This document shows positions 8,739 to 57,077 of a stretch of 64,000 nt of DNA, piece after piece. The position numbers were made by a program, and so were the translations under genes. The notes beneath the pieces are model-generated. The model was given only the letters and a program-made list of their open reading frames with translations. It did no database searches and had not been told where the DNA came from. Origin of the DNA: Hyaloraphidium curvatum (taxonomy: Eukaryota > Monoblepharomycota > Hyaloraphidiomycetes > Hyaloraphidiales > Hyaloraphidiaceae); contig JAIVFI010000012.1 in the NCBI GenBank assembly GCA_025558095.1, positions 682,001 to 746,000 on the forward strand, written 5' to 3'. Numbering within the stretch: the stretch's first letter is position 1; the number at the start of each line of letters is the position of its first letter.

Positions 8739-10200
8739 ATGGAGACGGCCGACAAGCGCGTTTTCGAGGCTTTCGAGCAGCGTTTTACTAATGCGGAATG
8801 GCTCTGCTTGTTCCCCGAGGGGCTCAAGGACCCGGGGCCCCTCGACGCGCCGTTGCCTCCCGACCCTGCCGCGGATCTCCGCATGGTTTCTCCCGTCACG
8901 CGTGCGACGCTGGTCCGCGAGCTGCGCCCGGAGTCGCTGCCCGCGGCGGCCGCGGTGGCGGTGCAGACCGCGCTGGTGCCGCACTCTGCACTTCTGGTGC
9001 CGTGGATTCTGGCCGGGTCCGCGGGCATCGCGGTCGTCACAATCGCCGCGTTGTTCGGCAACGCCGTTCTGGGCGTGTTTGGGACGCCGCAAATGGCCGC
9101 GGGCATCGCCGCCGTCCTGTTCTACGCCGTGCTCAGCGGCGTGGCCGGCTCGACCACCGTGCTCCCCACACTCCTTACGCGCCACGCCGCGCCCTCGCAG
9201 AGGCCGCGCGACGCCGACGCCAGCTCGCACCCGTACGCGCCCATCGCGCGCTGGCTGCAGCTCAGGCGCTTCGCGGATGGCACGGAACCCACGCGCCTCC
9301 TCGCGCACGACCCGCGGGACAAGTTGTGCCCCTGTCCGGACCCCGCGTGCGCAGGAGGGCTGCCGGCCGCCGCCGGGTACTGGCGCACAGCCGAGTTCGT
9401 CGTCAGGGTGCTCGCGGTCTACGCCCTCTACTTCTCTCTGTTCTACACCGCCTTCGTCACGCTCGGCGGCGTGATCTGGCACTCGTGGTGGGGCATAGCC
9501 GCCTCCACGTTCGCCCTCATCAGCACCTCTGGCTTCGCCGCCTTCGCCATCGCCCTCCGCTTCGGCGGGAACCCCCCAGCGCGGCGCCTCCTCTTCCGCC
9601 TGCGGCACCGCGCCCTCGTCCTGTGCCTCCGCTCCATGCTGGACCACTACCGCCTCGCCCCGCACGACGCCGGCGAGAAACCTCCCTGCGACAAATCCTA
9701 CCTCGCCCTGCACGCCGCCCTCTCCGTCTCGTGGGACGATCGCACGGTGCCCATGACCTCGGCCGGCTTCATGGCGGTGTACTTTGCCGGTGCCGCGGTC
9801 GGAGGGATCATCAACGCCACCGCGGGGTCGTGCGTCCCCGTGTGGTGCTTCCTCCTCCTCGCGCAGATGCTGGTTGCCGTCACGGTCGACATGGTCAATG
9901 CCGCGGCGACCAACGAGGAGATCTCGGCGGCCGCGGAGCTGTACCTCCGCGCGGGGGCGGAGCTCCAGCTGCTGCTCCCGTTCCACGCCGACCCCGAGCG
10001 CACCGAAATGGCGTCCCGCGCGGCGGGGCTGGGGATGTTTGCCAACGCGGGGGGGAGGAAGCCCAGGTTGGCGCGTGGCAGTCGATTTCGGGGTCGTGCG
10101 GACGGTCCTGGTGACGGCCTTCACGGTGTTCATCGGGTTGTGGACGCTGCTCAGGTCGGCAGGGGTGGACGTGGTGATGGATATGGCGTGCAGGGGGTGA
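8739..10200 (+). CDS. 7-TM CPC-motif family protein F1 (one frameshift)
   Basis: First of six related multi-pass membrane proteins here. From ATG 8739: the N-terminal motif TNAEWLCLFPEG, a helix PVTRATLVRELRP, TM1 and TM2 (about residues 85-140), a loop with LLAHDPRDKLCPCPDPACAG, TM3 and TM4 (about 225-280), a loop with ALVLCLRSMLDHYR, TM5 and TM6 around GSCVPVWCF, a helix NEEISAAAELYLRAGAEL and a last TM. The final part (VAVDFGVVRTVLVTAFTVFI onward, ending MACRG) lies in another frame and stops at 10200. The shift falls between a run of seven G at 10049-10055 and 10075; no intron of usable size fits. This is either a recent mutation or a homopolymer sequencing error. The function is unknown. 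Confidence 0.7.
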
Positions 10201-12190: not shown

Positions 12191-12278
12191 TTGAACAGAG
12201 GTCAAGCGTCCCCATGTCCACGGGAAGCCGTGTTCATGGCGCCACGTCGGCAGATCCTGCGCAGCGCCGCCTGCCGCG

Positions 12279-15200: not shown

Positions 15201-18200
15201 CCCCGCCGCCTCCTCAGCCCGCCCCCCTCCCGGCCGCAACCCCCGTGCAGCGCCCCAAACCCGCGCCGCGCCCCCCGAAACCCGCTGCCGTCACCACTCC
15301 GCCGGCCGCTCCGCCCCCCCGCCCCGCCCCGCGGCCCCCGCCCCCGCCGCCGGTGCTGGACCCCTTCCCTGTGCGCATCCAGGTGCGCCCCGCCAACGGG
15401 CCCCCGCGCAAGCCGCGCTGGACGACGTGCCACCGCTCGACCGCCGAGGACCACGTGTTCGTGGACCGCGACGCCGGGCTGCTGGTTCCAGGGACGGGGT
15501 ACGTCGTCCGCGTGGGGTACGCGCTGCCCGATACCCCGGACTCGGAGGTGCTCTGGACCGACGTCGAGCAGAGCACGCTTCCCTGCGCCACCCCCTCGCG
15601 CGCGCTCGCGCTGGAGCTGGAGCCGCTGCTGTCCGTACCCGGTCGCGCCGAAGGGTACCTTGGCTTGGAGCCCAAGCCGGGGAGGGAGGACGTGCTGCGG
15701 ATGCTGTGGGACCCGCCGGTGGGGAGCCCCGAGGAGTACTGCCCCCACCTCGAGTACGCGCTCGAGGCGAGGTGGGAGTGGGAGGGGGAGGAGTTGGAGA
15801 TCGGGGGGAAGGTGGAGGTGGGGGAGCTGGTGGACCTGGGGGACGTCGAGGAGAAAACGGGGGAGGAGGAGGCCGTGGGCGAGGAGGTCGGCGGGCAGGG
15901 TGGGTCCGAAGATGAGGCGTCGGGCGATGCGACTGCTGACGGCGCGCACGGCGACCCAGACTACCGCGAGGTCTACCGGTCGCACGACGCCGGCGCTGGC
16001 ATCTCGGTGCGTAACCTGCTCCTGGAGCTGCTCGGCCCCGACCGCGTGCTCCGCATCGCCGAGGCCTACCGCCCCGACGCCAGCATCACCAGCCACACGC
16101 GGCTGCGTTCCATCCGTGGGCTGCGCGTCGGGTTCCGCCTAAAGTGCACCAACCCGGCCTCGTCGGGCGCCGACGTGCTCGCCGAGGAGGAGGTCGAGTG
16201 GTCGCTGGATCCCAACGGCGTGGGTGCGGTCAGCTGGGCCGCCGTCGCCGCGCGCAGGCTGCAGTACCCCGGCCACGCGGCGGTGATCGACGCCAGCAGC
16301 GCGCCCGTGGAGCAGCAGCTCGGCGCGTCGCCGCCCAGGGCATCGTCGCGGTGGCATCGCGGCAAGTTCCTGGTCAGGGGGTTGGAGCCCGAGGCCAAGG
16401 AGGCCAAGGTCCACCCCGGGGCCAGGGAGCTGCGGGACGGGGACGAGCCGGGGAGGCCACCGTCGCCGCCGCCGCTACCGGATGCGGACATGGACCTGAG
16501 GCACGTGATCGCGCCGGCGTGGTTCTTTGACGAAGACGCGCCGGAGGAGGACGAGGAGGAGAGCGCCGCTGGGGCGGAAGGAGAGGCGGCGCGGGAGGAC
16601 GCGGAGATGGCCGAGGCGGGGGGGCCTGAACAGCAGCTGCCCGGCGACGGATCTGCTGTGAGGGGCGACGGCGAGCCCGGCGACGTGCTTCCGCCGCTGA
16701 CGGCCGAGGAGGAGCGCAGCATGCAGATGGTGCTCGACGACCTGCTAGCCGCCGCAAGCAATGGCGAGTTCTCGCTCGAGGCGGCGGAGGGGCTCGAAGC
16801 CGGCCTGGCAGGCCTGGCCGGTCTGCCGCTGCTCACGGCGTCGGCGGTACAGCACGAGCCCGAGGAGATGGACGAGGCGGAGGAGATGCACGAGGTCGAG
16901 GAGCCGCGAACGCCCGAGATCGCAGCACCGGTGCCTATTTCCGCGCTGGAGATGGCGGCTGGCGCCCAGACGCCCGTTTCACCGCCGCCGCGGGTGCTGC
17001 AGGGCACGCCGGAGCGCGTGCAGTCGGACTACGAGCTCGTCAAGGCGCTGCAGGACCTCGAGAGCCTCCTCAGCGCACACGAGATCATCATTCCCAGCAC
17101 CTCGCATCCTGCGGCTCCACGCCCTGCGGAGCAGGCACAGCTTGGACCCCGGCCGCCGCAGGTTCGGGGCTCGCCTTCGCGTTCGCCGAGGAGGCCGCGG
17201 CCCGTGGACTCGACCAAGGGCAAGGGCCGCCTACAGCCGCCTCCTCCCGCGCCGGTAGTTGCGCCGCCCCCCCTTGCGCCTGTGCTTGCGCCGCCCGAGC
17301 CCCCGAAGGCGCCCGAACCCGTTCCCGAACCGTCGCCTGCTGAGGCGCCGGAGCCTCCCGCTGAGGTCGAGGAAGAAGAGGAGGAAATTGATTCGGGCAC
17401 GATCGAGGAGGCTGCCGCCGTGGCTGCGTCGTCGCCGGCGAACCAGCGGGCCGTCGTGCAGCCGACCTTGGAGGACGCGGCGGAGGAACAGGAGCTTCCG
17501 GCGCCCAACGGCCACAGCAACGGCGATGGTCACGAGGACGACACCGAGTCGGAGCCCGAGGAAGTGGCCGCCGCGCCCTCGGAGCCTGAGGAACGGGTGT
17601 CGCGCGGGAAGCGGCAGCGGTCCGAGGCAGAAGAGCCGCCAAACGCGTCGCCGAAGCGGCCGAGGCGGGAGGTCGAGCACTCGCAGCCGCCTCCGCCGCC
17701 GGAAGCAACCGTGAGCGCCGAGTCGGCCCCGCCGCCGGAGCCCGAGGCGGACGTCGACATGGAAGGAGACGGCGAGCAAGAGTCAGAGTCGTCTTCGGAG
17801 GCGCCCGAGATCAAGCAGCCCAAGCCCATCCTCACCGCCAAAGCCGCGCTCAAGGACCTCCCGCCGGCGACGCCCTCGTCGGCCGAAGCATCGGCCTCGG
17901 CATCTGCCCCCTCGGGAAGCGCCGGCTCCCAGTCTACCTCCGCCGCAGGCCTCACAAGCCACCTTCTAGAGCCGCCCGAAAAGCCAAAGCGCGGCCGCCC
18001 GCCCAACTCCTACTACGTCGCCCTGCAAAAGTACCAGCAGCAGCAGGCCCTTTTGCGCGCCGCCGCCGAGCGAGACTCTTCGGATCAGGCCGAGAATCCT
18101 TCCTCGGAGCCTCCGGCCGCCGCCTCCACCCCACCTTCCCTCGCCCCGCCTGCCAAGCCGCCCGCCACGGTCGCCACCAGCAGGCCGGTGGAGCGGTCGG

Positions 18201-25044: not shown

Positions 25045-25892
25045 GGCGAATACGGTGGCGGCGGCGATGCCGGTGTCCCGCCGCCAGGATCAGCTACCGC
25101 GGACGGTGCCTTGTCCGACGAGATCTCCCAATCGTCGAGCGCATGTGTCCGCATCCAAACCTCCTGTGACTCGGTCAGGTCGCCCCCCGCCCTGTGCCAG
25201 GCCGCAAGCGCCGACCACGCGTCACCGATAGCATCACGGCCGCCGTCATCGAGGAGCTCGGAACCTGGCCATTCGAGGTGCGCCGGCGAACCGGGCTCCG
25301 TGTGAGCATACCAAGGAGGCAAGGTGCGCGTCGGAGTGGATACTTCCGAGGAGCTCTGCCCCCCCCCGGCCGTTGGTGCCGGCGGCGTGCCGGGGGTTGT
25401 GCGGGGCGGCGCAGGCGGCAGCTGCAAGCTCGGCACGGCGGTTGCAGCTGGGGTTTCCCACGGAGGATGGCCTGGGTGCGCCGAGAGCATGGAAGCGGCC
25501 GAAGCCGGGGCATCAGCGATCAAGATCTGCGATGACGAGGAGGGAGATACTTCCGAGCATGCCGCCCCTTTCCCCCCCGCTGGTGCCGGCAAGCGGGAGG
25601 AGCCGCGGGGCGGCGTGGGCAGAGTGTGACCCTCGGCCAAGCTAGGCACGGCATTTGGCCGAGGGGCCCCGGGGGACGCGGGGTCAATGTCGGAAGTCTC
25701 CCCTGCTGCCGCGAACGGCCTCGGAACTCGGTGAGACGTTGTAGATAGTGGTAGTTGGCGTACCGGTGAAGACTGCAAAACAGCAAAAGATGGAGGGGCT
25801 GACCGCGCCCGGGAGGTATCCGGACGAGCTCGGCGCCGAGAAGAGCAGCCCACTACTCGGCGTTGCCACTTGCTTGGTGGTGTTTTAGGCAT
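25041..25892 (-). CDS. Retroelement middle ORF, Pro/Ser-rich, function unknown
   Basis: 283 residues from an ATG that overlaps the ORF1 stop codon, ending in a TGA that overlaps the ORF2 start. Composition is Pro, Ser and Ala rich with almost no predicted secondary structure, except the last third (AWSALAAWHRAGGDLTESQE), which looks helical. The protein ends with a PPPY-containing tail. The two overlaps suggest translation by termination-reinitiation rather than a separate mRNA. No similar retroelement ORF is known to me. Confidence 0.55.
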   Translation of the reverse strand: MPKTPPSKWQRRVVGCSSRRRARPDTSRARSAPPSFAVLQSSPVRQLPLSTTSHRVPRPFAAAGETSDIDPASPGAPRPNAVPSLAEGHTLPTPPRGSSRLPAPAGGKGAACSEVSPSSSSQILIADAPASAASMLSAHPGHPPWETPAATAVPSLQLPPAPPRTTPGTPPAPTAGGGQSSSEVSTPTRTLPPWYAHTEPGSPAHLEWPGSELLDDGGRDAIGDAWSALAAWHRAGGDLTESQEVWMRTHALDDWEISSDKAPSAVADPGGGTPASPPPPYSP

Positions 25893-28023
25893 TCAAGGAC
25901 GGTGAGCCAGGAGCCGGCAGCAGGGATCCGGTTGACGTGGAGGCGGCCTTGGCCTGGGGGGAGCCGAGCTTGCGAACGGCCGCCTTGGCCTTCCGTTCCG
26001 CTTTGGCGGATTTGACGTCGATTTGCTGATACGGCTTGGCAACCTTGTCCGGGTTTGTCCCTGCCACATCCTCCACGGGACGGCCCTTGCCTGCGTGCTT
26101 GGGGCCTGGGGCCATCGTAGGATCACCAACCGCGGATGCCCCAGCGGCCTCATCGGCCGTGTGCATGTCTTCGCTTGGTGCCTCCGAGTTCGAACCATCG
26201 CCCTCAGCAGAGGCTTCGGAGGCGGCGTCGTTTCCACCCGAGGCCTCAGAGCCGGTGGCATCCTCCTCCATCGCAGATTCCGTGCCCTCCATTGCGGGAG
26301 CAGCAAGCTCCAGATCCTCCAGCGCGGTATTGGCTGCAACCTGCTGTGCAGCACTGCTGATGGCGTTCTCAGCGGCCAGCTGGTCGGCACCACCCATGTC
26401 CTCGTCCCCATCCTTGTCAGCCGGCTCCAAAATGGGAAGACCATGGAAATCCATCTTTTCGGCGGCGTCAGACTCCCCCCAATCGACCGAAGCACCGGCA
26501 CCACCACCACCGAGTGCCGAAAACCTGTTGTGGGACGCCTTGGCCACTGGCTGGGCAAGAGCTGGGGGCGCAGAGCCTGCGCGCTTGCCGGACGGCCCAG
26601 CTGTAAGCCACTCGTTGGCCGCAGGGGCGGTGGGGGAAGCCAGATGCGGAGGAACGACCTCTTCCCTCAGGGGGGGCAGCCGCGGGGTCGTGGCGGGCTC
26701 CACCGTTGGGGGAGAGAGCCGTACGTTGGCCGGGTTGTGAATGCAGTCCGCCTCGTGCGCACGGCGTGCTTGCGGGCTGGCAAAGGCGCCGGGATTCATG
26801 CGGTTGAGACCGTCTGGGCAGTAAGCACAGTTGGTGCACGTGGCATCGTCACCGACGTGGCCGCCCGTGCGCTTGCAGTGGCCGCACTGTCCGTTGCTAC
26901 TGTCATAGCGGACAGCTGGGCGAAGGAGCTTGTGCTGGAGGAGTGTCCCCCACGAGTCAAGGAAGCAGTACGAGGGTGGGCCAATGCGTGCTGCGCGGTC
27001 AAAGAAGGCATCAACCCCGCACTGCGAGACGTCGAAAGTGACCCGCCAGAAGGCGTTGCTGTCGGTGCCCGAGATGGGAGCCGCTTCAATGACTTGGCAA
27101 GGGGCCCCATAGTGGTTCTGGAAAGTCGCGTAGAGGCGGGCCCACCAGTCCGGGCACTCGTGCACCGAACCAGGGACGATCATGGGCCCGATCTTGAGCT
27201 CGGCGTGCGTGTCCTTGAAGACAGGGTGGATGCGCAGCCGACGCGTCGGGCCGTTTGGGAACTTGACCTCCAGCACCCCCTGCTCCACCAAGGCGTTGAT
27301 AGCGTCTGCCCCGTCGACAGCACCAACAACACAGAAGAGGTCCAGTCGCGAGTAACGCGGGTTGTAGCCTCGCGTCTCGGTCGTGAAGACGGTGGTGGGG
27401 AAGGTCGCCTTCGCCACGGCTTCGGCGACGACGCGCCGTCGGTCCTTTGGCACACCGTTGAGGTCGATGAGGCAGTGGGGGACAGGCCCAATGAAGGCCG
27501 GCGTGTAGCCCCGACCGTTGGCGTGCGGTTGCACCCGATCGATGAGCTTGGCGTAGTTGGTGGGCGCCGAGAAAGGCATGGCAGAAGCCAGATGCTCCGC
27601 CATCGCGCCGTCCGTGACACGAACAATCGGGCGGTCGGGCGAGGTGCGCGACGTTGCTGCGGCGAAAGAGCGAGACCCCAGGCGCGTGGCGGGGGCGGTT
27701 GCTTTCGGGAGACGATTCTGCGGAGCCGGCTCCTCCCGGGCGCCGCCGTTGGCGGACGCGGGGCGGATTTCAGTGGTCGATTCAGCAGCGTCCTCCTTAG
27801 AACCTGTCAGCTGAGCCGTAGCACCAGCGGGGGCCGGCGCGGGCTCCTCTGCCGCGCCAGGGAGGCGAGGAGAGGCAGCGACGCCGGGAGCGTGGGAAGA
27901 GTGGACGGGATTCGCAAGCGCCTCCGAGGAGGCCGCGGCGAGCGCAGGGGAGACCTTGCCATCAGGCAGGACCACGGGAGCGGCCGCATCATTGGGCCCC
28001 TGCCCTGTGTCAGGGGGGTCCAT
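25885..28023 (-). CDS. Retroelement ORF1, Gag-like with Cys-rich knuckle
   Basis: 712 residues. Residues 1 to about 130 are disordered. A central folded region (FIGPVPHCLIDLNGVPKD to VFKDTHAELKIGPMIVPG) looks RRM-like or like the RNA-binding core of other retroelement ORF1 proteins. It is followed by a second domain (CPDWWARLYATFQNHYG) and a Cys-rich knuckle CGHCKRTGGHVGDDATCTNC at about residue 385, with the same order of Cys pairs as nucleic-acid-binding fingers. The C-terminal 250 residues are acidic then basic (KSAKAERKAKAAVRKLG). The arrangement fits an RNA-binding nucleocapsid-like protein. It is the only intact ORF of the element together with the middle ORF. Confidence 0.65.
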   Translation of the reverse strand: MDPPDTGQGPNDAAAPVVLPDGKVSPALAAASSEALANPVHSSHAPGVAASPRLPGAAEEPAPAPAGATAQLTGSKEDAAESTTEIRPASANGGAREEPAPQNRLPKATAPATRLGSRSFAAATSRTSPDRPIVRVTDGAMAEHLASAMPFSAPTNYAKLIDRVQPHANGRGYTPAFIGPVPHCLIDLNGVPKDRRRVVAEAVAKATFPTTVFTTETRGYNPRYSRLDLFCVVGAVDGADAINALVEQGVLEVKFPNGPTRRLRIHPVFKDTHAELKIGPMIVPGSVHECPDWWARLYATFQNHYGAPCQVIEAAPISGTDSNAFWRVTFDVSQCGVDAFFDRAARIGPPSYCFLDSWGTLLQHKLLRPAVRYDSSNGQCGHCKRTGGHVGDDATCTNCAYCPDGLNRMNPGAFASPQARRAHEADCIHNPANVRLSPPTVEPATTPRLPPLREEVVPPHLASPTAPAANEWLTAGPSGKRAGSAPPALAQPVAKASHNRFSALGGGGAGASVDWGESDAAEKMDFHGLPILEPADKDGDEDMGGADQLAAENAISSAAQQVAANTALEDLELAAPAMEGTESAMEEDATGSEASGGNDAASEASAEGDGSNSEAPSEDMHTADEAAGASAVGDPTMAPGPKHAGKGRPVEDVAGTNPDKVAKPYQQIDVKSAKAERKAKAAVRKLGSPQAKAASTSTGSLLPAPGSPSLNA

Positions 28024-28332: not shown

Positions 28333-29847
28333 TCAAGCCCGCGGCGGACACACGAGCTCGCCCGTCAGCACGACCCCCAGCCCCCGGAGCACGCTCCACA
28401 GCCCCACCGCCAGCGTCACCGCGGTCACCAGCAGCGTCCTCAGAGCGCCAAAGGTCACCACGAACCCCAGGAACCTGGCCCTGTACCTGTCGGCCCCGGT
28501 GTACCCGGTCAGCACCTGCACGTCGGCGTCCAGCGCTGCGGCCAGGGCCGGGTCCGCGCGGGAGGGGCACGCGAGGAGCTCCCGCCGGAGATCGGCCAGC
28601 TCCTGCGCCGCGTCGAAGTACAGCGAGCGGATGTCGTCGATCTGGGCGTTGGCGGCTGCCACGTGCACGAGGTCGAAGAGGAAGGTGGCGAGGAGCTGGT
28701 AGAGCAGGTAGGCCGGGTACAAGGCGGGGAGGCACGCGCCGGCGGCCATGTTTGCGCAGCCGGCGACGACGGCAGCGGCGACGGGGATGAGCAGAGGCGA
28801 AGACGCATTGTAGCTCCTGATACGGTTCCGCCAGCCGGAGGCAAAGATGCGGTGCAGGTCCATGTAGGCTGCGCGCTGCGGGTTCTCGGAACCTGTCCAG
28901 GAGCCGGAAAAGGCGGCGCTGCGGTACCACTCGACCAGTGGCGTCAGCGCCAGCCTCATCGCGCGGCGGTTGATTCTGCGGGACAGCTGGAGGAGCGGAA
29001 GGTTCGTCGAGAACCGACCAAAGGCGATCGGGATTCCAAAGGCAACGGTGCCTGCGAGAAAGAACGCGCACATGAATGCAGACCAGGGAGTGGCCCAGAT
29101 TGCGAGCATCATGGGAGGGAAAATTGAGGCGCCGGCCAGGAAGAAGGTGGTCATCAGGAGGTAGATGCCGAACTTGAAGGCCGATTCTGCCACCCGGGCC
29201 ACACCTGCGCGGAGCGGGATGGTTCCCGCGCACGATGCGTTGCTGCACGGGCACAGAAGGTCCTTCGGATCGTGCTCAAGCAGGGATCCCGCAGTTGCCG
29301 GGCGGCGAGCCGCGAGCTGTATCCACCGGGCGAGCCCGGCCGCACCGTGGGAAGAAAACTCTGGTGAAGACTGCGGCATCCCCGACGGTGAAGCGGATCC
29401 AACGGTCTTGAAGGTGCTCCGGTACACCGAGAAGATCGAAACCAGGAACGTGCAGGCGGTGCCCATCACAAGGAAGGCTGCCATCCCGACAGCGAGCTGC
29501 GGAACACTGTAGTACCCGCCGCCGAAGACGCAGACCACGGCCGTTAACCCAATGAAGCCCAGGAACGACCACGTGGCCCGGACGAATGTCCTTCGCGACC
29601 ACGGGTGCACAAAGACCTGCAGCCGCACGGAAGCGGCCAGGGCTCCCGTTTGGGGGCGCAGCGCGGCCAAAAGCGCCTCCAAAGTGAGCGGCCGCTCGGA
29701 GCGCACGGCGGCGGCGGGATCCCCTGGCGGCGAGGCCGCGGGGAGGTCGGGGAACCACTCCGGCGCCGCGGGGAGGACGGCGAGCCACTCGTCCTCGTCG
29801 AGGCGAAACTCCGCGGGAGGAACGTCGATCTTTGCGTCGCCCGACAT
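28333..29847 (-). CDS. 7-TM CPC-motif family protein F2 (intact)
   Basis: Intron-less, 504 residues from ATG 29847. The N-terminal motif is LDEDEWLAVLPAAPEW, then PLTLEALLAALRPQ. TM1 and TM2 cover about residues 87-140, followed by a 65-residue loop with WIQLAARRP and LLEHDPKDLLCPCSNASCAG. TM3 and TM4 cover about 210-265, then a loop with SRRINRRAMRLALTPLVEWY. TM5 and TM6 flank GACLPALYPAYL, then HVAAANAQIDDIRSLYFDAA and a loop. The last TM carries RYRARFLGFVVTFGALRTLL and GLWSVLRGLGVVL, ending ELVCPPRA. Seven hydrophobic segments are counted by eye. The family has no name known to me; a chemoreceptor or transporter role is possible but unproven. The start lies 124 bp from the divergent copy F3, implying a shared promoter. 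Confidence 0.8.
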   Translation of the reverse strand: MSGDAKIDVPPAEFRLDEDEWLAVLPAAPEWFPDLPAASPPGDPAAAVRSERPLTLEALLAALRPQTGALAASVRLQVFVHPWSRRTFVRATWSFLGFIGLTAVVCVFGGGYYSVPQLAVGMAAFLVMGTACTFLVSIFSVYRSTFKTVGSASPSGMPQSSPEFSSHGAAGLARWIQLAARRPATAGSLLEHDPKDLLCPCSNASCAGTIPLRAGVARVAESAFKFGIYLLMTTFFLAGASIFPPMMLAIWATPWSAFMCAFFLAGTVAFGIPIAFGRFSTNLPLLQLSRRINRRAMRLALTPLVEWYRSAAFSGSWTGSENPQRAAYMDLHRIFASGWRNRIRSYNASSPLLIPVAAAVVAGCANMAAGACLPALYPAYLLYQLLATFLFDLVHVAAANAQIDDIRSLYFDAAQELADLRRELLACPSRADPALAAALDADVQVLTGYTGADRYRARFLGFVVTFGALRTLLVTAVTLAVGLWSVLRGLGVVLTGELVCPPRA

Positions 29848-29971
29848 GTTGGATAATGACGAAGCGCGGATACTGTAGCACGCGAAGGACAGCCCGTCAG
29901 ACAGCAGTCTGCGATAGGAATCTTCGATCCTTTGCCACTTGGCCGTCCCAACTCGAGCCCGGGCTGCACGC

Positions 29972-31616
29972 GATGGAGACCGAACTCCCGGTGCCTTTGC
30001 TGCTGAGTGCGGACGAGTCCGCGCTCTCTTCCCCGCCGTCCGGCGGCCCCCGCCGAGCGCGACCTCGGCGGCGCCGCCCCGGATCTCCGCAGCCAGCAAT
30101 GCGACGCCGCGCACGGGCTCCGCGACCGGCCGCTGACCGAGGCCGAAGTACTGCGCGCGCTCGAGCCGCACCCGGGGCTGCGCACGGTCCTGCGGCTCCA
30201 GCTCTCTCCCTTCGTCAACTCCTACCCGGTGCTGCGGCGGATCCCGGCCTTTGTTACGACCATGACCCTCATGGCGACTATCTGGTTGCCGAATGACGGC
30301 CGGTTCGGAACTAAGCAGCTCGCGACCTGTGTGTTCGTGCCGCCGCCGGGGCTCCGAATCGCCCGCTGACGCGTTGCCAGATTGCGTCGCCCTCCCCCTG
30401 GTCTGGCTGGGCAACGTATTCGTCTTTTTCATTTTCTTTTCGTGTTCAAAGTCCCGGCACGAGAATGCCCCTCGGCGGCTCGCGTCGCCGGCCTGGAAGC
30501 ACACGCGTTGGCGCCCCTAGTGCTCTGGCTGCAGCTTTCTTTCCCAACCTCGTGCTCGGGACAACCGGATGCTGAGCATGGGGGCGCGAAGATCAGGCCG
30601 GGCGGCCTCCTCGTCGCGCACGAGCCCGACGACCGGCTCTGCCCCTGCCCCCGCGCGGAGTGCGCCGGTTGGATCCCGGGGCGGGTGCTGCTCGCGCGAC
30701 TGGCGGTGCAGGTTCCGCGCAGCCTCGTCTACTTGTTCATCACGTACTTTTCGGCGCGGTGGACCCAGCTCGTCACCTTTGGGGCGTCTACGTGGGGAAT
30801 GCCGTGGACGTGTGCCGTGGCATCGCTTGCCCGTACGCAATCGAGCTCCGCTCTACGACACGAGCAGGCCCCTGTTGAACCTGAACGCCCGCCTCACGCA
30901 TAGGGCCCTCAGGCTGCACCTGACGGTCTTCATGCGGCGCTACCGGGATGCCCTCGACAAGGACGCCGGTGCTTCAATGCCGGCCCTTCCCGAGGCGGAG
31001 CCCTACCAGGCGCTGCACCCCTGGATCGCCGCGACCTTCAACCAGCGCATCGTTCAGCTGGGCCTCTCGCAAGCCTGGTACTCTTCGATGATCGTCTGCT
31101 TCGTCGTCTACATTGCCCTCTTCATCGTAGGTGCCACCGGGATATCCACGGTACCCGCATCGCCCACCGGCCGCGCCCCGCCAGGCCACCGGATCCTGCA
31201 TCCCCCTCGCATTCTTCACCACCCTCATCCTCAACATCATCCTCCTCGTCGTCGAGCTGGGCCTCGTCGCCACCGGCAACACGCAGGTCTCCACCGCCGC
31301 AGACCTCTACCTCCAGGCCCGCCGCGAGGCCCGCGAACTTACGGCCGCGGCCACCATCCGCGCCGCCTGCGACCCCGATCCTGACCGTTCGGCCCACGCG
31401 GCGAAGCTCTCGGCGGCGCTGGTCCGCCACGCGGACGTGCTGGGCTCGTTCGCGGGCATCGGGGAGCGGAGGGTAAGGTTTCTCGGGTTCCCGGTGTCGT
31501 TCGGGACCGTGAGGACGCTGTGCATCACCGGGTTCACGGTCGGGTTCGGCCTGTGGAGCATCCTGCGCGGCGCGGGGGTGTTTCTGACGGTGGAGTCGGC
31601 CTGCCCGAACGTGTGA
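29972..31616 (+). pseudogene. 7-TM CPC-motif family copy F3, probably decayed
   Basis: Begins at ATG 29972 (METELPVPLLLSADESALSS), but the continuation (RPLTEAEVLRALEPHPGLR, then a TM with FVTTMTLMATIW) lies in another frame; a two-base CT duplication near 30027 could explain the shift. The middle part shows LVAHEPDDRLCPCPRAECAG in yet another register, and the segment after TM3 (SARWTQLVTFGASTWGMPW) leads into a frame break near 30840. From about 30880 the frame is good again: THRALRLHLTVFMRRYRDAL, a 58-nt intron 31127-31184 before GSCIPLAFF, then STAADLYLQARREARELT, RRVRFLGFPVSFGTVRTL and a stop at 31616. Some breaks could be further introns, but at least one is not. I call it a pseudogene or a badly damaged gene. 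Confidence 0.6.
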
Positions 31617-31806
31617 TTGGCCGGAGCGGCAAGCAGCGGGTGACCGGGATGTTCATCCATCAGGGCGGGATCATTACGTTGCTTGAGCATGCCGAAGACT
31701 TCTGATGTCAGATGTCCATGTACAGATTGCATTGCCTCCCCGGGTCCAGGCTGTGCACGATGGAACATTCCTCGTTGCGTTAGCCGGCCGCCCTCCCATT
31801 CGCGCG

Positions 31807-33433
31807 ATGGTGGCCTCCCAGCTCTCCCTCGCCGGCCAGCCCGTCGCATTCACCGCCGAAGAATGGACGGTGATGTTCCCCGCGGCCGAGGCGGGCGACG
31901 GCTCCGTATTCGAGGGCCAAGTGCCGGCGGAGGAGGATCCCGCCGCGGACCACCGCCGCGCCGACCCGCTGACCCGGACGGCGCTGCTTGCCGAGCTGCG
32001 CTCACGGAGCGCGCTGGCGCACGCGTTTGTGGCGGTGCAGTTCGCGGTCGCGCCGTGGGCCTCGCGGACCGTGCTCCGGTTCTTCCTGCACGCCGTCGGC
32101 AACATCCTCATGCTCGTCTGGGTGCTCAACAACGACGGCGGGATGTTCGTCGGCGCCAGGAGGACCTCCGGGGTCATCGCATTCGTGTTTGCTAGCCTCG
32201 GCGTCGGCCTCCTGTTCCCCTTCTTCTCAGTGATCAAGAGCAAGTACGCCGAGCTGGCGGCGGGCGCCGAGGACGCGAGCAGGCTCACCTACGCGCAGGC
32301 CGCGCGATGGTCCCAGCTGGTCCGCAGGATCGGCCAGGCCGGCGTCGCAAAGCCCGAAGACGCCGAGGCGGGCAAGGAGTCGCAGGAACCAATGTCTCTG
32401 CTGCTCGCGCACAATCCCAAGGACCCGCTCTGCCCGTGCGCCGATCCCGATTGCGCGGGGGACCTGCTGCGGACGGCCGGCATAGCCCGTGCGGGCGACC
32501 TGGTTTTCCGGATTTGCATCTACCTCGTCGCCCAGGGGCTCATAATTAACTGGACGGGGTTCGTGACTCTTGGGGACAGCCTCTGGTCCTCGCCGTCCGG
32601 CGTACTAGCGGCGATCCTTGTCAGTGAGTGCATGTCCTCAGTTCGGCCGCTTGCAAGCTCCAATCGAGCCCCCAAATCCAGTCGCCGCAAACCTCAGCTT
32701 GTTCGTCACCACGGCCGTCAGCCTCGTGCCGGCCATGCCCCCCGTGCACCAGCTCGCGCTCCGGATCCACCACCGCGCCATGTCGCTGGCACTCGCTTCC
32801 CTGTTGGCGAGGTACCAGCGCGCGCTCTTCGGTCCCCAAGACGGATCCAAGCTCGCACAGATGCCGCACGAAACGGAGCCCTACACAAAGATCCACACTT
32901 TCCTTGTCGCCAACTGGTCTCGCGGCGACCCATTCATCCTGACGGGGGGCAAGTTCTTCTCCATCACCACCGCCGTCTACATCATCTCGGGGTTCATCTT
33001 TGCCCTGGGGGGCTCCTGTATCCCGGCCTTTGTGCCCTGCTTCCTCCTCGTGCTTCTCGCCATCTTCACCCTGGACCTGGTCAACTATGCCTACGCCAAC
33101 GGACGGATCAACTCCATCACGGATCTGTACCGAGATGCGCAGCGCCACGTGCAGGAGATGATGCACCGCGCAGACCGTGCCATCCCCGCCGGCGACGCCG
33201 AACGCAGGCAGCTCCTCTTCGGCCTGCAGATCCACGACCGCATCCTGTAATCATACGTGGGCTCGCACAGGCACAAGGCCAAGCTGCTGGGTTTCCCGAT
33301 CGACTGGACCGTCATCAGGACGCTCTACCTGACCGCGATACCCGTGGTGTTTGCGCTGTACTCGGTGCTTGGTGGGGCGGGGGTCAGGTTGACCATGGAG
33401 ACCCTGTGCCCGGCGCCGAAGCCGGCGGCGTGA
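31807..33433 (+). CDS. 7-TM CPC-motif family copy F4 with in-frame stop
   Basis: Starts at ATG 31807 (MVASQLSLAG; an earlier ATG at 31705 is possible). The motifs are FTAEEWTVMFPAAE, PLTRTALLAELRS, TM1 and TM2, LLAHNPKDPLCPCADPDCAG, TM3 and TM4, intron 32624-32681 (58 nt, phase 1), IHHRAMSLALASLLARYQRA, TM5 and TM6 with GSCIPAF, and NYAYANGRINSITDLYRDAQ. A TAA at 33248-33250 interrupts just before the last conserved segment, and the same frame continues HKAKLLGFPIDWTVIRTLY to a TGA at 33431. The stop would remove the last TM. Because the sequence after the stop is fully conserved, the mutation is recent, or the codon is read through, or it is a sequencing error. Confidence 0.7.
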
Positions 33434-33618
33434 TTGGCGGCGCGGCCAGGATGATCGGACTTTCGGGCGACAGGTTGTACCCTACCACCGTCCGAATCAC
33501 AGGTAGAATAGACGAGGGCTTCGGCGGAGTGTTGGTCGGAACCGCTGTCCCGCTCCTCGCCCAACCCTCGCCCGTCAAAACCGCTCGCGACTGCCCCCTC
33601 CCCTACGGGCCTGAAGGG

Positions 33619-34602
33619 ATGGCGGAACCTCCGAAGCCCGTTTCCTTTTCCGAGGCGGAGTGGTTGGCCATCTTCCCCGCGTTCCCCACCGTCCCTCCGT
33701 CGCTCTCGGCCGCACCCTCGCCGGCCGACCGCGCCGCCTCGCTGCGCGCCGCCAAACCTCTCACGCCCGGCGCGATGCTCCGCACCTTGAGACGCGCGGA
33801 TCCGCTCCTGGCCGCGTCCCTCACGCAGTTGCCCTGGGCGTCTTGGTCTACTTGATCCCAATCATCGGCCGCTTCTCCACCAACGCCTCCCTGCTTCGCC
33901 TTTCGCAACGGGTCCAGCATCGCGCCATGCGCCTCGCCCTTTCGTCGTTCCTGCAGCGGCTGCGGCGCGCGGCCCTCAAGGGGGACGTCGACATCGACGC
34001 TGCACCGCTGTATATCGAGCTGCAGGATCTGTACGCCTTGGTGTGGCAGCGCCGGATCTCTGCGACTAACGTCGGCACGCCCCAGCTGATCTTTGGCGGG
34101 GTGGCGGTCCTCTGCGCCATCGCAAACGTCGTAGGTCGATCTTGCGCGACCTCTGAGCTGCCCTTTAACCCGGACCCGCCGCAGGCCGTCGGTTCCTGCA
34201 TCCCCTGGTTCTTCATCTGCTACGTCTCCTACTTCATCCTCCTCACCTTCATCGACCTGATCAACTTTTCCGTCTCCAACGGCGCCATCGCCTCGGTCCG
34301 CGACCTCATCCTCGACGCCCGCGCCGAGGTCCGCGCCTGTCTCGCTGAACCGTCCCTCGCGATCGAGGGGAAGCTGACCGAGGGGCAGCGCGCGGCCGTG
34401 GCGCTGCTGAGGGCGCACGACGGGGTCCTGGCGGGCATGGAGGACGCGGACAGGTACAAGGCCAGGTTCCTGGGGTTCCCGATCGATTTCGGGGTCACGA
34501 GTGCTGGTGACGATCATCACCATCGTCATCGGCCTGTGGAGCATCGTCAGGGGGCAAGGTGCCTTCGTAACGCTGGAGATGGCATGCCCGTTGGTCAGAT
34601 GA
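33619..34602 (+). pseudogene. 7-TM CPC-motif family copy F5, central deletion and frameshift
   Basis: The first part (ATG 33619; FSEAEWLAIFPAFP, PLTPGAMLRTLRRADPLLAA, LTQLPWAS) is followed at about 33840 by sequence that corresponds to the end of TM4 in the other copies (VLVYLIPIIGRFSTN). TM1-TM3 and the CPC loop, roughly 200 residues, are missing and the frame changes. The remainder is conserved: QHRAMRLALSSFLQRLRRA, intron 34131-34183 before GSCIPWFFICY, FSVSNGAIASVRDLILDARA, DRYKARFLGFPIDFGV, then a second frame change near 34497 before VLVTIITIVIGLWSIVRG and the stop at 34600-34602. This is a clear pseudogene made by an internal deletion in a tandem array. Confidence 0.75.
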
Positions 34603-41614: not shown

Positions 41615-43387
41615 CTACATCCTGCTCCTGCTCTTCAACCCCGCCCGCATCCGCCCCTCCCGCCCATTCTCGCGATCCCCGTCCCCCTCCTCCCCCTCCC
41701 GCGTCCACCGCGCCTCATCGTGGCCGTTCTTCCTCGTCGACCACCTCCAGGCTCCACACACCACCTGCCCGCCCTCCGCGACGAACCCGAACGGCGGCCT
41801 GAGGAACCCCAGCTTCCCCCTCGCGCACCGCCCGTGCGTGCCCCACCACCCCGGGTTCGCCGCACAGAGCTCATCCACCTGCGGCGCGAGGTGCGAGAGG
41901 AGCACGGGGGCGAGCGAAGCGACGTCCATCCCCGGATCCGAGAGCTGCGCCGGGATCCCGACGCCGGTGCTTCCCTCCTGCATGCCGAAAGAGAGCACGT
42001 AGAACGCCGTCTGGCACAGCGACGTCTCGAGCATCACGTGCTCTCCCCCATCGTTCGTTGCCAGCGCGGCGAGGAGCCCCATCGCGAGCACTTCGCCCGT
42101 CATGAGGTCCAGCACCGTTGTCGGGAGCATCCGCGGCGTCTCCGCACCCGACGGCATCGCCAAACCAGTGAAGCACTGCGCGATCTGCTCCCACCCGCCG
42201 AGGTGGGACAGAGGGCCCGAGGGGCCGAAGCAGTTCTCGGAGAGGTAGTACAGGGGCCTACTCCGCGGGCGGCGACCGGATACAATCATCTCGTTGATGC
42301 GGAAGGCGAGGGCGGGGAAGCCCAGGCCGAGCCTGTCGAGCGCGCCGAGGCGGTACCCCTGGATGATGACGTCCGTCTCGGGGAGGATCTCCTCGAAGAA
42401 CACGCGGCGGTCCGCGTCCTTCTTCAGGTCCAAGAAAGCGGACCGTTTGCCCAGGGAGGTGTCAAGGACGAAGGCGTCGATGTCCGGCACGGTGGGGGAG
42501 GAGAGCTTGAGGACCTCGGCGCCGAGGGAGGCGAGGAGTTTGGAGGCGTGCGGGCCGGCGAGGATGCGGGAGAGGTCGAGGATTTTGAGGCCGGCGAGGG
42601 GTCGGAATGGCGTTGCTGGCGACAAAGGGTTCGCGGAACGAGATCCTTCCGAGCCGGGCACCGCTCCCGCGGGCCCCCCGGACGGCTTAACCGGCAGCGT
42701 GGATCTGACCAGCAATGGCATGGTGCCCAGCAGCCGCCCCTGCTCGGACTGCAGACACTCTTGCCTGGTCCTGACCATCGCCGCGCATGCCTCGTTCGCC
42801 CACAGCCGCTTCTCCGCCTCCTCGGCGGTCCAACCCGTCGCCGCGATCTTTGCCCTCAGAAACACCCGAGCAATTGCCTTGTCCTTCAGGTCCAGCTCGC
42901 GGAACGTCCTTTCGTCTGCCCGCGAGAACCCAAGCACCTCGAGCGTCCTCCTCGCCCCCATCGATTTGTGCAGGAAAACGTGCCTACCGTCCGCGAACGC
43001 GTGCAGGCCCGTCAAAACAGAGCCGTACCCCCCGGCCTTGACGGCTTTGGCGAGGATGCCGGAGTCGAACTCCTCGCCGTCGAGCGTGATGAAGTGGTGG
43101 GAGAAGAGCGAGAGCACCGCGTGGGCGGGTGAGGAGGACGTCCGCGGCATGGATCCCGCGCGCCGTTCGGCGACGAGCGCAGCCAGCGCGGCGGTGGCGA
43201 GGGAGATCGCCGCGGCGGGCTCCGCGAGGCGGAACGGCGACGCGGCGGCGAACGCGGCGAGGAAGTCGCGCGCGGCGGCATCGAGCGGCGCGTCGGCCGC
43301 CGCGAGGGCGCGCTGGGCGGCAGCACCGGAGATGCCGAGTCGGAGCAGCAGCGCGCGGGCCGCCATTCCGGTCTGTTCGGGGTTCAT
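41615..43387 (-). CDS. CoA-transferase family III (CaiB/BaiF) protein
   Basis: Intron-less, 590 residues from ATG 43387. The N-terminal 240 residues are a degenerate first half (HHFITLDGEEFDSG, ERTFRELDLKDKAIARVF). Then comes the family III core: PLAGLKILDLSRILAGPHASKLLASLGAEVLKL, FLDLKKDADRR, LPETDVIIQGYRLGALDRLG and NCFGPSGPLSHLGGWEQIAQ, followed by TTVLDLMTGEVLAMGLLAAL, which contains the catalytic-site Asp region of the family. Members move CoA between carboxylic acids and acyl-CoAs. The two-half layout is like the fungal and bacterial long forms. The last 60 residues (from WRWSTRKNGHDEARW) become basic and charged and may be a spurious extension. It shares a divergent promoter region with the kinase at 43781. 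Confidence 0.85.
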   Translation of the reverse strand: MNPEQTGMAARALLLRLGISGAAAQRALAAADAPLDAAARDFLAAFAAASPFRLAEPAAAISLATAALAALVAERRAGSMPRTSSSPAHAVLSLFSHHFITLDGEEFDSGILAKAVKAGGYGSVLTGLHAFADGRHVFLHKSMGARRTLEVLGFSRADERTFRELDLKDKAIARVFLRAKIAATGWTAEEAEKRLWANEACAAMVRTRQECLQSEQGRLLGTMPLLVRSTLPVKPSGGPAGAVPGSEGSRSANPLSPATPFRPLAGLKILDLSRILAGPHASKLLASLGAEVLKLSSPTVPDIDAFVLDTSLGKRSAFLDLKKDADRRVFFEEILPETDVIIQGYRLGALDRLGLGFPALAFRINEMIVSGRRPRSRPLYYLSENCFGPSGPLSHLGGWEQIAQCFTGLAMPSGAETPRMLPTTVLDLMTGEVLAMGLLAALATNDGGEHVMLETSLCQTAFYVLSFGMQEGSTGVGIPAQLSDPGMDVASLAPVLLSHLAPQVDELCAANPGWWGTHGRCARGKLGFLRPPFGFVAEGGQVVCGAWRWSTRKNGHDEARWTREGEEGDGDRENGREGRMRAGLKSRSRM

Positions 43388-43780
43388 GTTTGCACGCGGG
43401 AGACAGTCGATCGCGGGCACCGTCACGCGTTCCAGCTTGCCTGTGCCGCAGTCTCCAGGCTCCGTCCGCGCAAAGACGTTCCGACGCGTGGAAAGAAGGC
43501 CATGGAATCCGGGAAAGACCCGAACAGCAGCATACGGCGGCCTCGCCTCTCTCCCGCTCGAGCTGCTCGCCGCCGTCGTGCGCCCGTGAGCAACGGCAGC
43601 GTGGCCCCGCTGAAGCGGCGTGGGACCGGCACCTTCGGGAACAACACAGTGCCTCGAAGATGGCCGGACAAACGGACGTAGACTGCAAGAGACAATCAAC
43701 GACGCTATGGAGCGCAGCCCATGCAATTGTGGCGCACGCAGCCCCCTTCGCCTGCCTTTGCGTCAGGCACATCGATCGAC
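43388..43780. other. Divergent region between CoA-transferase and kinase genes
   Basis: 393 bp between two start codons facing away from each other; should hold both promoters. Frames crossing it have no family features. Confidence 0.45.
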
Positions 43781-49469: not shown

Positions 49470-51086
49470 TCACGAGCCGGCGCGGCAAGCAAAGTCCATG
49501 GTCGCCGTGATCCCGAGCCCCCTGACGATGCTCCACAGCCCGACCACGAGCGTGACCAGCGTGACCACCACCACGGTCCTCACGACATCGTAATCGACCG
49601 CAAACCCGAGGAACCTCCCCCGGAACCTCGCCACATCGGCGTACGAGGCGAGCACGGCGTCGTGCCGGCGGATGTCGGCGGCGAGCCCGGTGCCGCGGAC
49701 CACGGGCAGCTCGCGGATCTCGCGCTGCGCTTCGAGGTACAGGTCGCGGATGGAGGTCACCTGGGCGTTGGAGGCGGCGAGGGAGATGAGGTCGATGAGG
49801 GCGTGGCTGAGCAGCACGTTGGCGAGGTATGCAAGGTAGAAGGCGGGAACACACAACCCCGCGATCTGGAAACGCGGCGTGAGAACTCGAGAATAGAGCC
49901 ACTCGTTCCGTTGGGGTCTCACGATGTTGATGAGAGCCAAAACAACCGCCCCGAATGACGAGAACAGGGTCAACCTCGAGAAGCTGAAACTGGATATCCT
50001 CGTCCTCCAAACCGCCGTGAAGACGGCATGGAGCTCCGCGTACGGCTCGTCCGACACCGGCTCGCCGAGACGCGAAGCACCGGAGCGGAGGCGGAGGAGC
50101 AGATCCGCCAGGGCGAGCTTCATGGTCTTGTGTGCGACGCGCTCCGACAGCCTGAAGGTGCCGACATTCCCGGGGAAGCGGCAGATCGGGTTCACGTTGT
50201 GGCCAGCCAGACAGAGAACGGCGAATGCTCCGAGCGCAGCGGACCACGGAGTCGTCCAGAATTCACTCGCGAGGGTTACGACGGGGGTCCAGATCATCAT
50301 GAGCCCCATGCCGGTCATGAGAACCACCCTGAAGGAAGCCTCGAGGATCCGCAGCCAGGCAATGGCGCGGCCCAGGCCACCGGCGCATCCGGGAAGGCTG
50401 CAAGGACAGAGAGGATCGTTCGGATCGTGCGCGAGGAGCAGGAAACGCTCCGATTTCCCGGACCGCACAACGAGCTCCGTCCACCGTGCGAGGCCGGCGA
50501 GAGGGAACGCGTCGAGCAGCCCGGAACCGGATCGGGGCCGCGCGCCGAGCGCCCGGCGGTAGATGTCGAACGAAGGGTTGACGAGGAGGATCTGCGCCGC
50601 AAAGGCGAGCCACGTCGCATAGCCGATGGCGAGCTCCTTCGTGGCGAACAGGTCGCCGCGGAAGGCCCAAGTTGCCGAAACGGCGGCAGCCAGCCCTATG
50701 AAGACAACTGCGCTGCGCTCCAGGCTCCGGGCGGCAAACGGGGTCAACCACAGCTGCAGTGCCGTGATCGAGCGCAGGGCCGGCTGGGCGGCCAATCCCG
50801 CCAGCAGCTCCTTCTTGCCGAGCGGTCGGGCAATTCGGAGCCGCTCCGCACGATCTGGCGGCGGCGGGATTCCGGAGAAGGAGGGGACGAGCGCCGGGAA
50901 CGACGGCACCACGGCGAGGTACTCGGGCGGCGTCACGATGAAGCTCCCTTTGCCGTCCGCGTCCGCCGGGGCCTCTGCCGCGTTTAGTATGTCCACGACG
51001 ACGGCTCTGTCGCCGGTGCCGTGCTCGGGGGCCTCCAGGTGACACTGTGCACTATGCGAGGAAACGTCGGCGGAATCGCGGTCCAT
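49470..51086 (-). CDS. 7-TM CPC-motif family protein F6 (intact)
   Basis: From ATG 51086 (an upstream ATG at 51122 is possible). Motifs are VTPPEYLAVVPSFPAL, PLGKKELLAGLAAQ, TM1 and TM2, WTELVVRSGKSERF with LLAHDPNDPLCPCSLPGCAG, TM3 and TM4, RVAHKTMKLALADLLLRLRS, TM5 and TM6 with GLCVPAFYLAYL, LAASNAQVTSIRDLYLEAQ, and FRGRFLGFAVDYDVVRTVVV with GLWSIVRGLG. A 57-nt GT..AG intron at 49922-49866 is in frame; removing it takes out 19 residues without TM character just before the LCVP motif, where copies F3 and F5 also have an intron. The spliced protein is about 519 residues. With F2 this is the best reference copy of the family. The start codon is only 40 bp from the divergent gene at 51127. Confidence 0.8.
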   Translation of the reverse strand: MDRDSADVSSHSAQCHLEAPEHGTGDRAVVVDILNAAEAPADADGKGSFIVTPPEYLAVVPSFPALVPSFSGIPPPPDRAERLRIARPLGKKELLAGLAAQPALRSITALQLWLTPFAARSLERSAVVFIGLAAAVSATWAFRGDLFATKELAIGYATWLAFAAQILLVNPSFDIYRRALGARPRSGSGLLDAFPLAGLARWTELVVRSGKSERFLLLAHDPNDPLCPCSLPGCAGGLGRAIAWLRILEASFRVVLMTGMGLMMIWTPVVTLASEFWTTPWSAALGAFAVLCLAGHNVNPICRFPGNVGTFRLSERVAHKTMKLALADLLLRLRSGASRLGEPVSDEPYAELHAVFTAVWRTRISSFSFSRLTLFSSFGAVVLALINIVRPQRNEWLYSRVLTPRFQIAGLCVPAFYLAYLANVLLSHALIDLISLAASNAQVTSIRDLYLEAQREIRELPVVRGTGLAADIRRHDAVLASYADVARFRGRFLGFAVDYDVVRTVVVVTLVTLVVGLWSIVRGLGITATMDFACRAGS

Positions 51087-51126
51087 CTCGCCGCGCCAAG
51101 GATCCCGACGCCTCGAAGACACGGCA

Positions 51127-56502: not shown

Positions 56503-57077
56503 GGTCGGGAACCGCGGAGAGGTTGTCGGGCGGGATGGCAGGACCCGGAAAGGGCCCGCATTCGACTGGTGGGGTGCAACGCGAGGACGTCCCGGGAAGG
56601 AACTGGATTGGGACACCTGTTCGGTCACGAAGCGGAAGAAGAACTACTGGGACCATATCGTGGAGTGGGCGTCGGAAGGACCCTGGCGAGGAGAGCGACC
56701 GACCTGTGAGCGTGAGCCAGCACAACTCGGACGACTCCCGTCCGAATCTGAGCGGGAATCGCATCCCTACGATGAGGTCGGGAGCGACGAGAGTGACTGG
56801 TGATGTAGACTTCGATCATTGGCTCCTGGAATCGCCCAGGCATGGCCCATGGAGTGGAGGAACGTTTCTCCGCACCTCCTCGATTCTCCGCAAGTTCTTC
56901 GTAGTTGCCCGCAGTCTCGCCTCTCACGATCTGAAGAGCACCGTAGCCATCTCTGTGCCTCATTCTCGGCCAGTGCGTTTGCGCAAGGCGCCTCACTCAG
57001 GTTGTTCCGTGTGGCCGGGCGTCAGGGGCCACGCGTCCGCAGCAGCGCGTCCCCCCACATCCGCCCGATTGCCCGCC
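56503..57077. other. Divergent intergenic region
   Basis: 575 bp between the start codons of the metallopeptidase (-) and the glucosyltransferase (+). No gene; it should hold both promoters. Lower GC around 56770-56820. Confidence 0.5.

What the first reader, a model, noticed from the sequence alone, without database searches (positions are those of the whole stretch)
28333..34602. Uncharacterised 7-TM family with a conserved His/Asp-CPC loop, in tandem expansion
Six copies (8739-10200, 28333-29847, 29972-31616, 31807-33433, 33619-34602, 49470-51086) share a fixed architecture: an N-terminal acidic-aromatic motif (E-E/D-W-L..F-P), PLT..LL..LR, two TMs, a loop with L(L/V)xHxPxDxLCPC followed by xxxxCAG, two TMs, a basic helix (R-A-x-x-L-A-L), a TM pair around (S/A)C(I/V/L)P, a helix N-x-x-I-x-S-x-x-x-L-Y, and a final TM preceded by R-(x)-R-F-L-G-F. 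I know no named family with this order. The CPC motif with nearby His and Asp could bind metal. Seven TMs and rapid turnover recall chemoreceptor families, including gustatory-receptor-like proteins reported outside animals, but the similarity is only in layout. This is the strongest candidate for an undescribed system here.
Basis: partly seen in the sequence, partly recalled or inferred. Interest (0 to 1): 0.85.

Follow-up and report, generated by a model that had tools for sequence, protein, structure and literature searches.

The report
Giant fungal family of insect-receptor-like proteins
A fungus carries at least 174, and probably about 260, scattered copies of a previously undescribed seven-helix membrane protein whose topology and predicted fold resemble insect taste and smell receptor channels, which suggests that a fungus evolved a chemosensory repertoire on the scale of an insect's.

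Summary
The observation largely holds, but the bigger story lies outside the window. The window has exactly six copies. The His...Asp-CPC...CAG loop is in five; F5 has lost it. F2 and F6 are intact; the other four are interrupted. They are not a tandem array: they are 29-40% identical to each other, and four have nearest kin on other contigs (58-66%). The fungal genome (32 Mb) holds at least 174 members; capture-recapture suggests about 260. In 60 members chosen without the motif, H192, C199, C206, C372, N400 and R470 are invariant. dN/dS is 0.24-0.47. No Pfam family or solved structure matches by sequence. Charges give seven TMs, N-terminus inside, long inner loops. AlphaFold2 models show cytosolic helix extensions and a split TM7. 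The better model's top 15 structural matches are all insect odorant/gustatory receptors (Z 8.4-12.5, 294-346 residues); the weaker model agrees less clearly. Covariation supports the cytosolic anchor. Best explanation: a new, hugely expanded branch of the insect-chemoreceptor-like 7TM channel superfamily, with a zinc-type HCCC module in cytosolic loop 1 and an external disulfide. Channel and sensory function are inferred, not shown. The surveys I could read report one such gene in each of two chytrids.

The parts
28333..29847 (-). F2: intact single-exon member, 504 aa; reference copy
   Evidence: open reading frame; profile score 578 bits; AF2 model
29230..29274 (-). F2 metal-site-like module H192-D196-C199-P-C201-C206 in cytosolic loop 1
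   Evidence: H192, C199, C206 60/60, C201 59/60, D196 58/60 in the 60 members not chosen by the motif
49470..51086 (-). F6: intact single-exon member, 538 aa
   Evidence: open reading frame; profile 513 bits; second AF2 model
8739..10197 (+). F1: member with one frame change at or just after a run of seven G at 10049-10055 (real indel or sequencing error)
   Evidence: nearest kin L128 58%
30007..31616 (+). F3: interrupted member; introns at recurrent sites (profile ~258 and ~367), in-frame stop at 30367-30369, start motif in another frame
   Evidence: nearest kin L082 66%
31807..33433 (+). F4: member with an intron after TM4 (about 32620-32700) and an in-frame TAA at 33248
33619..34602 (+). 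F5: decayed member; TM1-TM4 and the CPC module missing, frame change before TM7b
   Evidence: profile 8-76, then 258-465, then 469-498

Best explanation
These proteins are most likely a new, massively expanded branch of the 7TMIC superfamily (insect odorant/gustatory receptors, GRLs, PHTF, plant DUF3537). Each has a cytosolic N-terminus, helices S0-S6, and S7 split into a cytosolic S7a and a membrane S7b joined by a short beta hairpin (the conserved R-F-L-G-F stretch). The long cytosolic ends of the helices, with S7a, form the anchor through which four subunits would assemble. S7b (R470, T475, T478, G-L-W, R/K488) would line a central ion pore, and a divergent pocket among S1-S6 would bind a small molecule and open the pore. 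Two features are specific to this family: a HCCC site (H192, C199, C201, C206, with D196 close by) in cytosolic loop 1, which would bind zinc and hold the loop against the anchor; and C372 in the S5-S6 external loop with C500 in the external C-terminus, which would form a disulfide. About 260 mutually divergent copies would give a broad repertoire of chemical sensors. Shown: family, size, conserved residues, selection, topology by charge. Predicted: fold and anchor. Inferred: tetramer, channel, ligand binding, sensing, zinc, disulfide.
For: Topology: mean K+R per region is 7.2 (N-terminus), 6.9 (IL1), 9.1 (IL2), 7.9 (IL3) against 0.58, 0.37, 0.07 and 0.26 in EL1, EL2, EL3 and the C-terminus over 121 members: N-in, C-out, long inner loops, the published 7TMIC criteria (PMC7746228, PMC9998090). 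Fold: the F2 model (pTM 0.67) has S0, long S3-S6, S7a 433-455, beta hairpin, S7b 466-489; the F6 model repeats the split S7 and hairpin. VIA-align of the F2 model: the top 15 entries are all insect OR/GR, Z 12.5 with 346 of 375 residues for AaegOR10; the next unrelated row is Z 8.0 over 152 residues. Covariation over 125 members, nearly all unseen by the models: H332-Y410 (S5-S6), D419-Y449 (S6-S7a), Y328-D442 (S5-S7a) lie where the anchor predicts; 8 of the top 50 pairs fall on antiparallel helix-hairpin diagonals against 1.1 expected, p 1.2e-5. Only five conserved Cys, three predicted inside and two outside. dN/dS 0.24-0.47 in eight pairs.
Against: Foldseek alone gives no significant match (best E 0.8; BmGr9 ranks 2 and 3). 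The models are of middling confidence (pLDDT 65 and 63) because only window sequences could be used. With the poorer F6 model the OR/GR entries are the only matches over 230 residues but have Z 7.2-9.2 and are outranked by short helical bundles. The tool warns that Z under about 13 can mean only a common arrangement for helical proteins. No sequence-level match to 7tm_7 or any other Pfam family. The canonical TM7 motif is in 0 of 60. The hairpin diagonals were drawn with the model in view, and the S5-S6 signal rests on one pair.
Confidence: 0.72

Rival explanations
1. Same fold, but not chemoreceptors: an intracellular-membrane family of 7TMIC-like proteins with a housekeeping or regulatory role (as may hold for PHTF, DUF3537 or trypanosome GRLs) that happened to expand.
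For: PHTFs, the best studied non-insect branch, sit mainly in the endoplasmic reticulum and have no clear function (PMC9998090). The invariant cytosolic HCCC module suggests a shared intracellular partner. There are no ligand or expression data here.
Against: Hundreds of copies with a median pairwise identity of 29% on a conserved skeleton look like a diversifying receptor repertoire, not a housekeeping protein.
Confidence: 0.3
2. A different, novel 7-TM fold (receptor or transporter) with chance resemblance to OR/GR.
For: No significant Foldseek match; middling models; F6 model ambiguous.
Against: All top 15 VIA matches of F2 are one family over 294-346 residues. N-in topology, split TM7 and anchor couplings agree.
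Confidence: 0.17
3. A GPCR-type receptor family.
For: Seven TMs and large numbers; the profile brushes P2Y receptor chains at E 0.12-0.65.
Against: N-terminus inside and C-terminus outside by charge, the reverse of a GPCR; long loops after TM2, TM4 and TM6; no GPCR Pfam match.
Confidence: 0.03
4. A mobile or parasitic element family rather than host genes.
For: Dispersed over at least 42 contigs with decayed copies; a retroelement-like ORF lies next to F2 (25885-28023).
Against: Copies are single genes with recurrent introns and dN/dS 0.24-0.47. No pair over 77% identical among 121 members, unlike a recently active element.
Confidence: 0.03

Closest known systems
Insect odorant and gustatory receptors (AaegOR10 8v00, Gr43a 8jm9, MhOR5 7lic, BmGr9 8vc1)
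   Same: Seven TMs, N inside, S0 helix, cytosolic anchor from long helices, S7 split into S7a/S7b; top 15 structural matches of the F2 model; large divergent repertoire
   Different: No detectable sequence similarity; no TYhhhhhQF motif; a loop of about 60 residues with a HCCC site between S2 and S3, where BmGr9 has 5 residues by the published helix ends; a conserved pair of external Cys
Chytrid GRLs SpunGRL1 and SpalGRL1 (Benton et al. 2020, PMC7746228)
   Same: Fungal, GRL-like topology, TM7 motif largely lost
   Different: One gene per genome there, at least 174 loci here; no direct sequence comparison was possible with the tools at hand
PHTF1/2 (PMC9998090)
   Same: 7TMIC fold with a long first intracellular loop
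   Different: The PHTF loop exceeds 300 residues and the genes are few and conserved; no Pfam match of these proteins to any PHTF model
Plant DUF3537
   Same: 7TM with N inside, GRL relatives (PMC7746228)
   Different: No Pfam hit to DUF3537 in 54 members

Membership tests
7TMIC superfamily (OR/GR/GRL/PHTF/DUF3537) | Seven transmembrane helices | tested here: met
   Seven hydrophobic regions over 62 aligned members; helices in both models
7TMIC superfamily (OR/GR/GRL/PHTF/DUF3537) | Intracellular N-terminus | tested here: met
   Positive-inside count over 121 members; a computed, not experimental, result
7TMIC superfamily (OR/GR/GRL/PHTF/DUF3537) | Intracellular loops longer than extracellular loops | tested here: met
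   IL1, IL2, IL3 of 65-71 columns; EL1, EL2, EL3 of 7, 15 and 9
7TMIC superfamily (OR/GR/GRL/PHTF/DUF3537) | Long TM4-TM6 projecting into the cytosol as an anchor | tested here: met
   Helices 283-314, 323-368, 376-426 in the model; coupled pairs 332-410, 419-449, 328-442
7TMIC superfamily (OR/GR/GRL/PHTF/DUF3537) | TM7 split into TM7a and TM7b | tested here: met
   433-455 and 466-489 in F2; 433-454 and 465 onward in F6; predicted models only
7TMIC superfamily (OR/GR/GRL/PHTF/DUF3537) | Best structural match is OR/GR/Orco with Z above 10 | tested here: inconclusive
   F2: Z 12.5, OR/GR fill the top 15. F6: best OR/GR Z 9.2 at rank 17. Foldseek not significant
7TMIC superfamily (OR/GR/GRL/PHTF/DUF3537) | Tetrameric ligand-gated ion channel | not testable with these tools
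   Needs a complex structure or electrophysiology
Animal gustatory receptors (Pfam 7tm_7) | Sequence match to the Pfam family | tested here: not met
   No 7tm_7 match at E <= 0.1 in 54 members
Animal gustatory receptors (Pfam 7tm_7) | TM7 motif (T/S)Yhhhhh(Q/K/E)(F/L/M) | tested here: not met
   0 of 60 members; also mostly lost in chytrid GRLs (PMC7746228)
G-protein-coupled receptors | Extracellular N-terminus | tested here: not met
   Charge distribution indicates N inside
Zinc-binding HCCC site | Four co-conserved ligands (His and three Cys) | tested here: met
   H192, C199, C206 60/60 and C201 59/60 in the unbiased set
Zinc-binding HCCC site | Metal is bound | not testable with these tools
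   Needs metal analysis of purified protein

The most novel reading that the evidence does not exclude
A fungus independently expanded an insect-chemoreceptor-type channel into a repertoire of about 260 receptors, possibly the largest outside animals, each carrying a cytosolic zinc module that couples the ligand pocket to the anchor or to a shared cytosolic partner, and it uses them to sense chemicals, possibly without a flagellum.
Probability: 0.4. Interest if true: 0.92.

Novelty: new variant of a known kind. Interest (0 to 1): 0.82.

Why it matters
Large repertoires of insect-type chemoreceptor channels are known from animals; in fungi, the two surveys I could read report one gene in each of two Spizellomyces species. 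A fungal genome with about 260 divergent members would be an independent evolution of a large chemosensory repertoire on the same fold. It would supply a deep alignment for testing what the non-animal members do, a system without neurons for asking how such channels work, and a new cytosolic module to study. It would also give a first identity to a very large uncharacterised gene family of a fungus.

Tried and rejected
Pfam scan of 54 members: only single-member chance hits. Profile against PDB sequences: only P2Y and VMA21 at E >= 0.12, covering one helix pair. Foldseek against PDB: nothing at E <= 0.001. Bacterial/archaeal genome contigs with F2: no relative; viral contigs were not searched because the family alignment has no stretch conserved enough. 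7tm_7 model against the whole genome: no match, but nothing rang in the control genomes, so this does not show absence. Structure prediction was limited by its stated rule to window sequences, so I did not submit the genomic members and used covariation instead. Considered and dropped: tandem array; fusion to a signalling domain for a copy with a long open frame (L142 holds an ordinary member with the CPC motif); GPCR (topology); transposon family. IFT46 and radial spoke 3 gave no match in the genome; absence is not shown, so whether the fungus has a flagellum is open. COX1 gave none either, so the mitochondrial genome is probably not in the assembly. The species was not identified; four chitin synthase loci support a fungus.
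Full report
WHAT IS THERE. The window (G000:C12:682001-746000) comes from a 31.9-Mb, 55-contig genome; the window itself is about 67% GC. Four chitin synthase loci with E-values down to 5e-182 support a fungus. F2 and F6 are intact single-exon genes of 504 and 538 aa. F1 changes frame at or just after a run of seven G at 10049-10055. F3 has an in-frame stop at 30367-30369. F4 has an in-frame TAA at 33248. F5 has lost TM1-TM4 with the CPC module.

SIZE OF THE FAMILY. The DNA pattern for L-C-P-C-x4-C-A-G has 94 exact genomic matches against 0 for the reversed pattern. F2 as query scores 85 of 738 candidates, all at E <= 1e-21, and F6 scores 80 of 730. The union of all searches is 174 distinct loci on 42 contigs. 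Two capture-recapture estimates give about 256 and 258-273. These are rough: the patterns are not fully independent, and the searches give lower bounds.

NOT A TANDEM ARRAY. The six window copies are 29-40% identical to one another. F2's nearest kin is L017 on C30 (65%), F3's is L082 on C1 (66%), F6's is L095 on C9 (66%) and F1's is L128 on C28 (58%). The common ancestor of the six spans all 127 tips of the tree. Over the genome the median pairwise identity is 29% and no pair among 121 exceeds 77%. Only 28 of 174 loci have a known neighbour within 5 kb. F2-F5 is a local gathering of old, unrelated members.

REAL GENES UNDER SELECTION. Of 60 loci taken by motif, 13 are single-exon and full-length, and 33 more are full-length after removing short GT-AG introns (median 57 bases) that recur at profile positions ~120, ~260 and ~370. 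The remaining quarter are interrupted or incomplete. dN/dS in eight single-exon pairs is 0.24-0.47: functional, fairly fast-evolving genes.

CONSERVED RESIDUES. In the 60 members chosen by F2 similarity and not by the motif, H192, C199, C206, C372, N400 and R470 (F2 numbering) are in 60 of 60, C201 and C500 in 59, D196 in 58. These five are the only widely conserved cysteines. Three of them, with H192, sit in the loop between TM2 and TM3. C372 lies in the TM5-TM6 loop and C500 after TM7.

TOPOLOGY. Mean K+R per region is 7.2, 6.9, 9.1 and 7.9 in the N-terminus and in the loops after TM2, TM4 and TM6, against 0.58, 0.37, 0.07 and 0.26 in the other loops and the C-terminus. This puts the N-terminus and the three long loops in the cytosol and the C-terminus outside. 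The HCCC set is then cytosolic, fit for zinc, and C372-C500 is external, fit for a disulfide. Both of these readings are inference.

FOLD. AlphaFold2 could be given only window sequences. The F2 model has pLDDT 65 and pTM 0.67: S0 68-85, S1 87-108, S2 116-151, S3 210-250, S4 254-314 in two pieces, S5 323-368, S6 376-426, S7a 433-455, a beta hairpin at about 457-464, S7b 466-489. BmGr9 has the same order, with S0, long helices and S7a/S7b (PMC11100771). VIA-align: the top 15 entries are all insect odorant or gustatory receptors, Z 8.4-12.5 over 294-346 residues; the next row is MukF, Z 8.0 over 152 residues. Foldseek alone is not significant. The F6 model (pTM 0.56) repeats the split S7 and the hairpin; its only matches over 230 residues are OR/GR, but at Z 7.2-9.2 and below shorter helical bundles. 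A published screen for this superfamily used Z > 10 (PMC9998090). The fold is therefore likely, not proven.

INDEPENDENT CHECK. Covariation among 125 members, nearly all unseen by AlphaFold2, gives as strong long-range pairs H332-Y410 (S5-S6), D419-Y449 (S6-S7a) and Y328-D442 (S5-S7a). H332 and Y410 lie about 40 residues either side of the external S5-S6 turn, so both helices must run well below the membrane. Eight of the top 50 pairs fall on the antiparallel diagonals of the helix hairpins, 1.1 expected, p 1.2e-5. A mutual-information score puts several of the same pairs above all shuffles. Caveat: the diagonals were chosen with the model in view, and only one S5-S6 pair is strong.

WHAT IT IS. 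By sequence it matches no Pfam family and no solved structure. By the topology and structure criteria of Benton et al. 2020 and Benton and Himmel 2023 it meets all features that could be computed, apart from the Z test, which is inconclusive. It lacks the TM7 motif of animal receptors (0 of 60), which is also largely lost in the chytrid GRLs. I therefore call it a probable new branch of the 7TMIC superfamily, and not a member of the animal GR family. Function as a ligand-gated channel is inferred from the fold; a sensory role is inferred from number and divergence.

LIMITS. Expression is unknown. No other fungal genome could be searched. Himmel et al. 2023 could not be read, so earlier mention of fungal members cannot be excluded.

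Noticed in passing
25885-28023 (-): 712-aa frame with a Cys/His cluster and a low-complexity tail, resembling a retroelement gag/ORF1 protein, directly beside F2; no significant Pfam match.
   Followed up: partly
54937-56643 (-): M60/enhancin-like metallopeptidase with its N-terminal domain (Pfam E 1e-56).
   Followed up: no
41618-43762 (-): CoA-transferase family III domain (E 4e-42).
   Followed up: no
51043-52341 (+): F-box-like domain protein, next to F6.
   Followed up: no
56019-57833 (+): Glycosyltransferase family 28 N-terminal domain (E 2e-11).
   Followed up: no
12001-18000: Stretch of 72-75% GC with strong AT skew (0.12-0.25) and long open frames without Pfam match; an 18-base tandem repeat at 14369-14534.
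   Followed up: no
G000, nine places (e.g. C24:483579, C31:208962, C37:323575): A dispersed repeat TTCCTTGG(C/T)TTCTGGGGGAGT... in nine near-identical copies, unrelated to the family, that chanced to match a DNA pattern.
   Followed up: no
L077 and L078 (G000:C26:549327 and C26:550861): Two family members about 1.5 kb apart in opposite orientation with an identical 78-base TM7 stretch, an inverted pair that may mark recent duplication or gene conversion.
   Followed up: no
whole genome G000: IFT46 and radial spoke 3 models gave no match; the fungus may lack a flagellum, but absence is not shown.
   Followed up: partly
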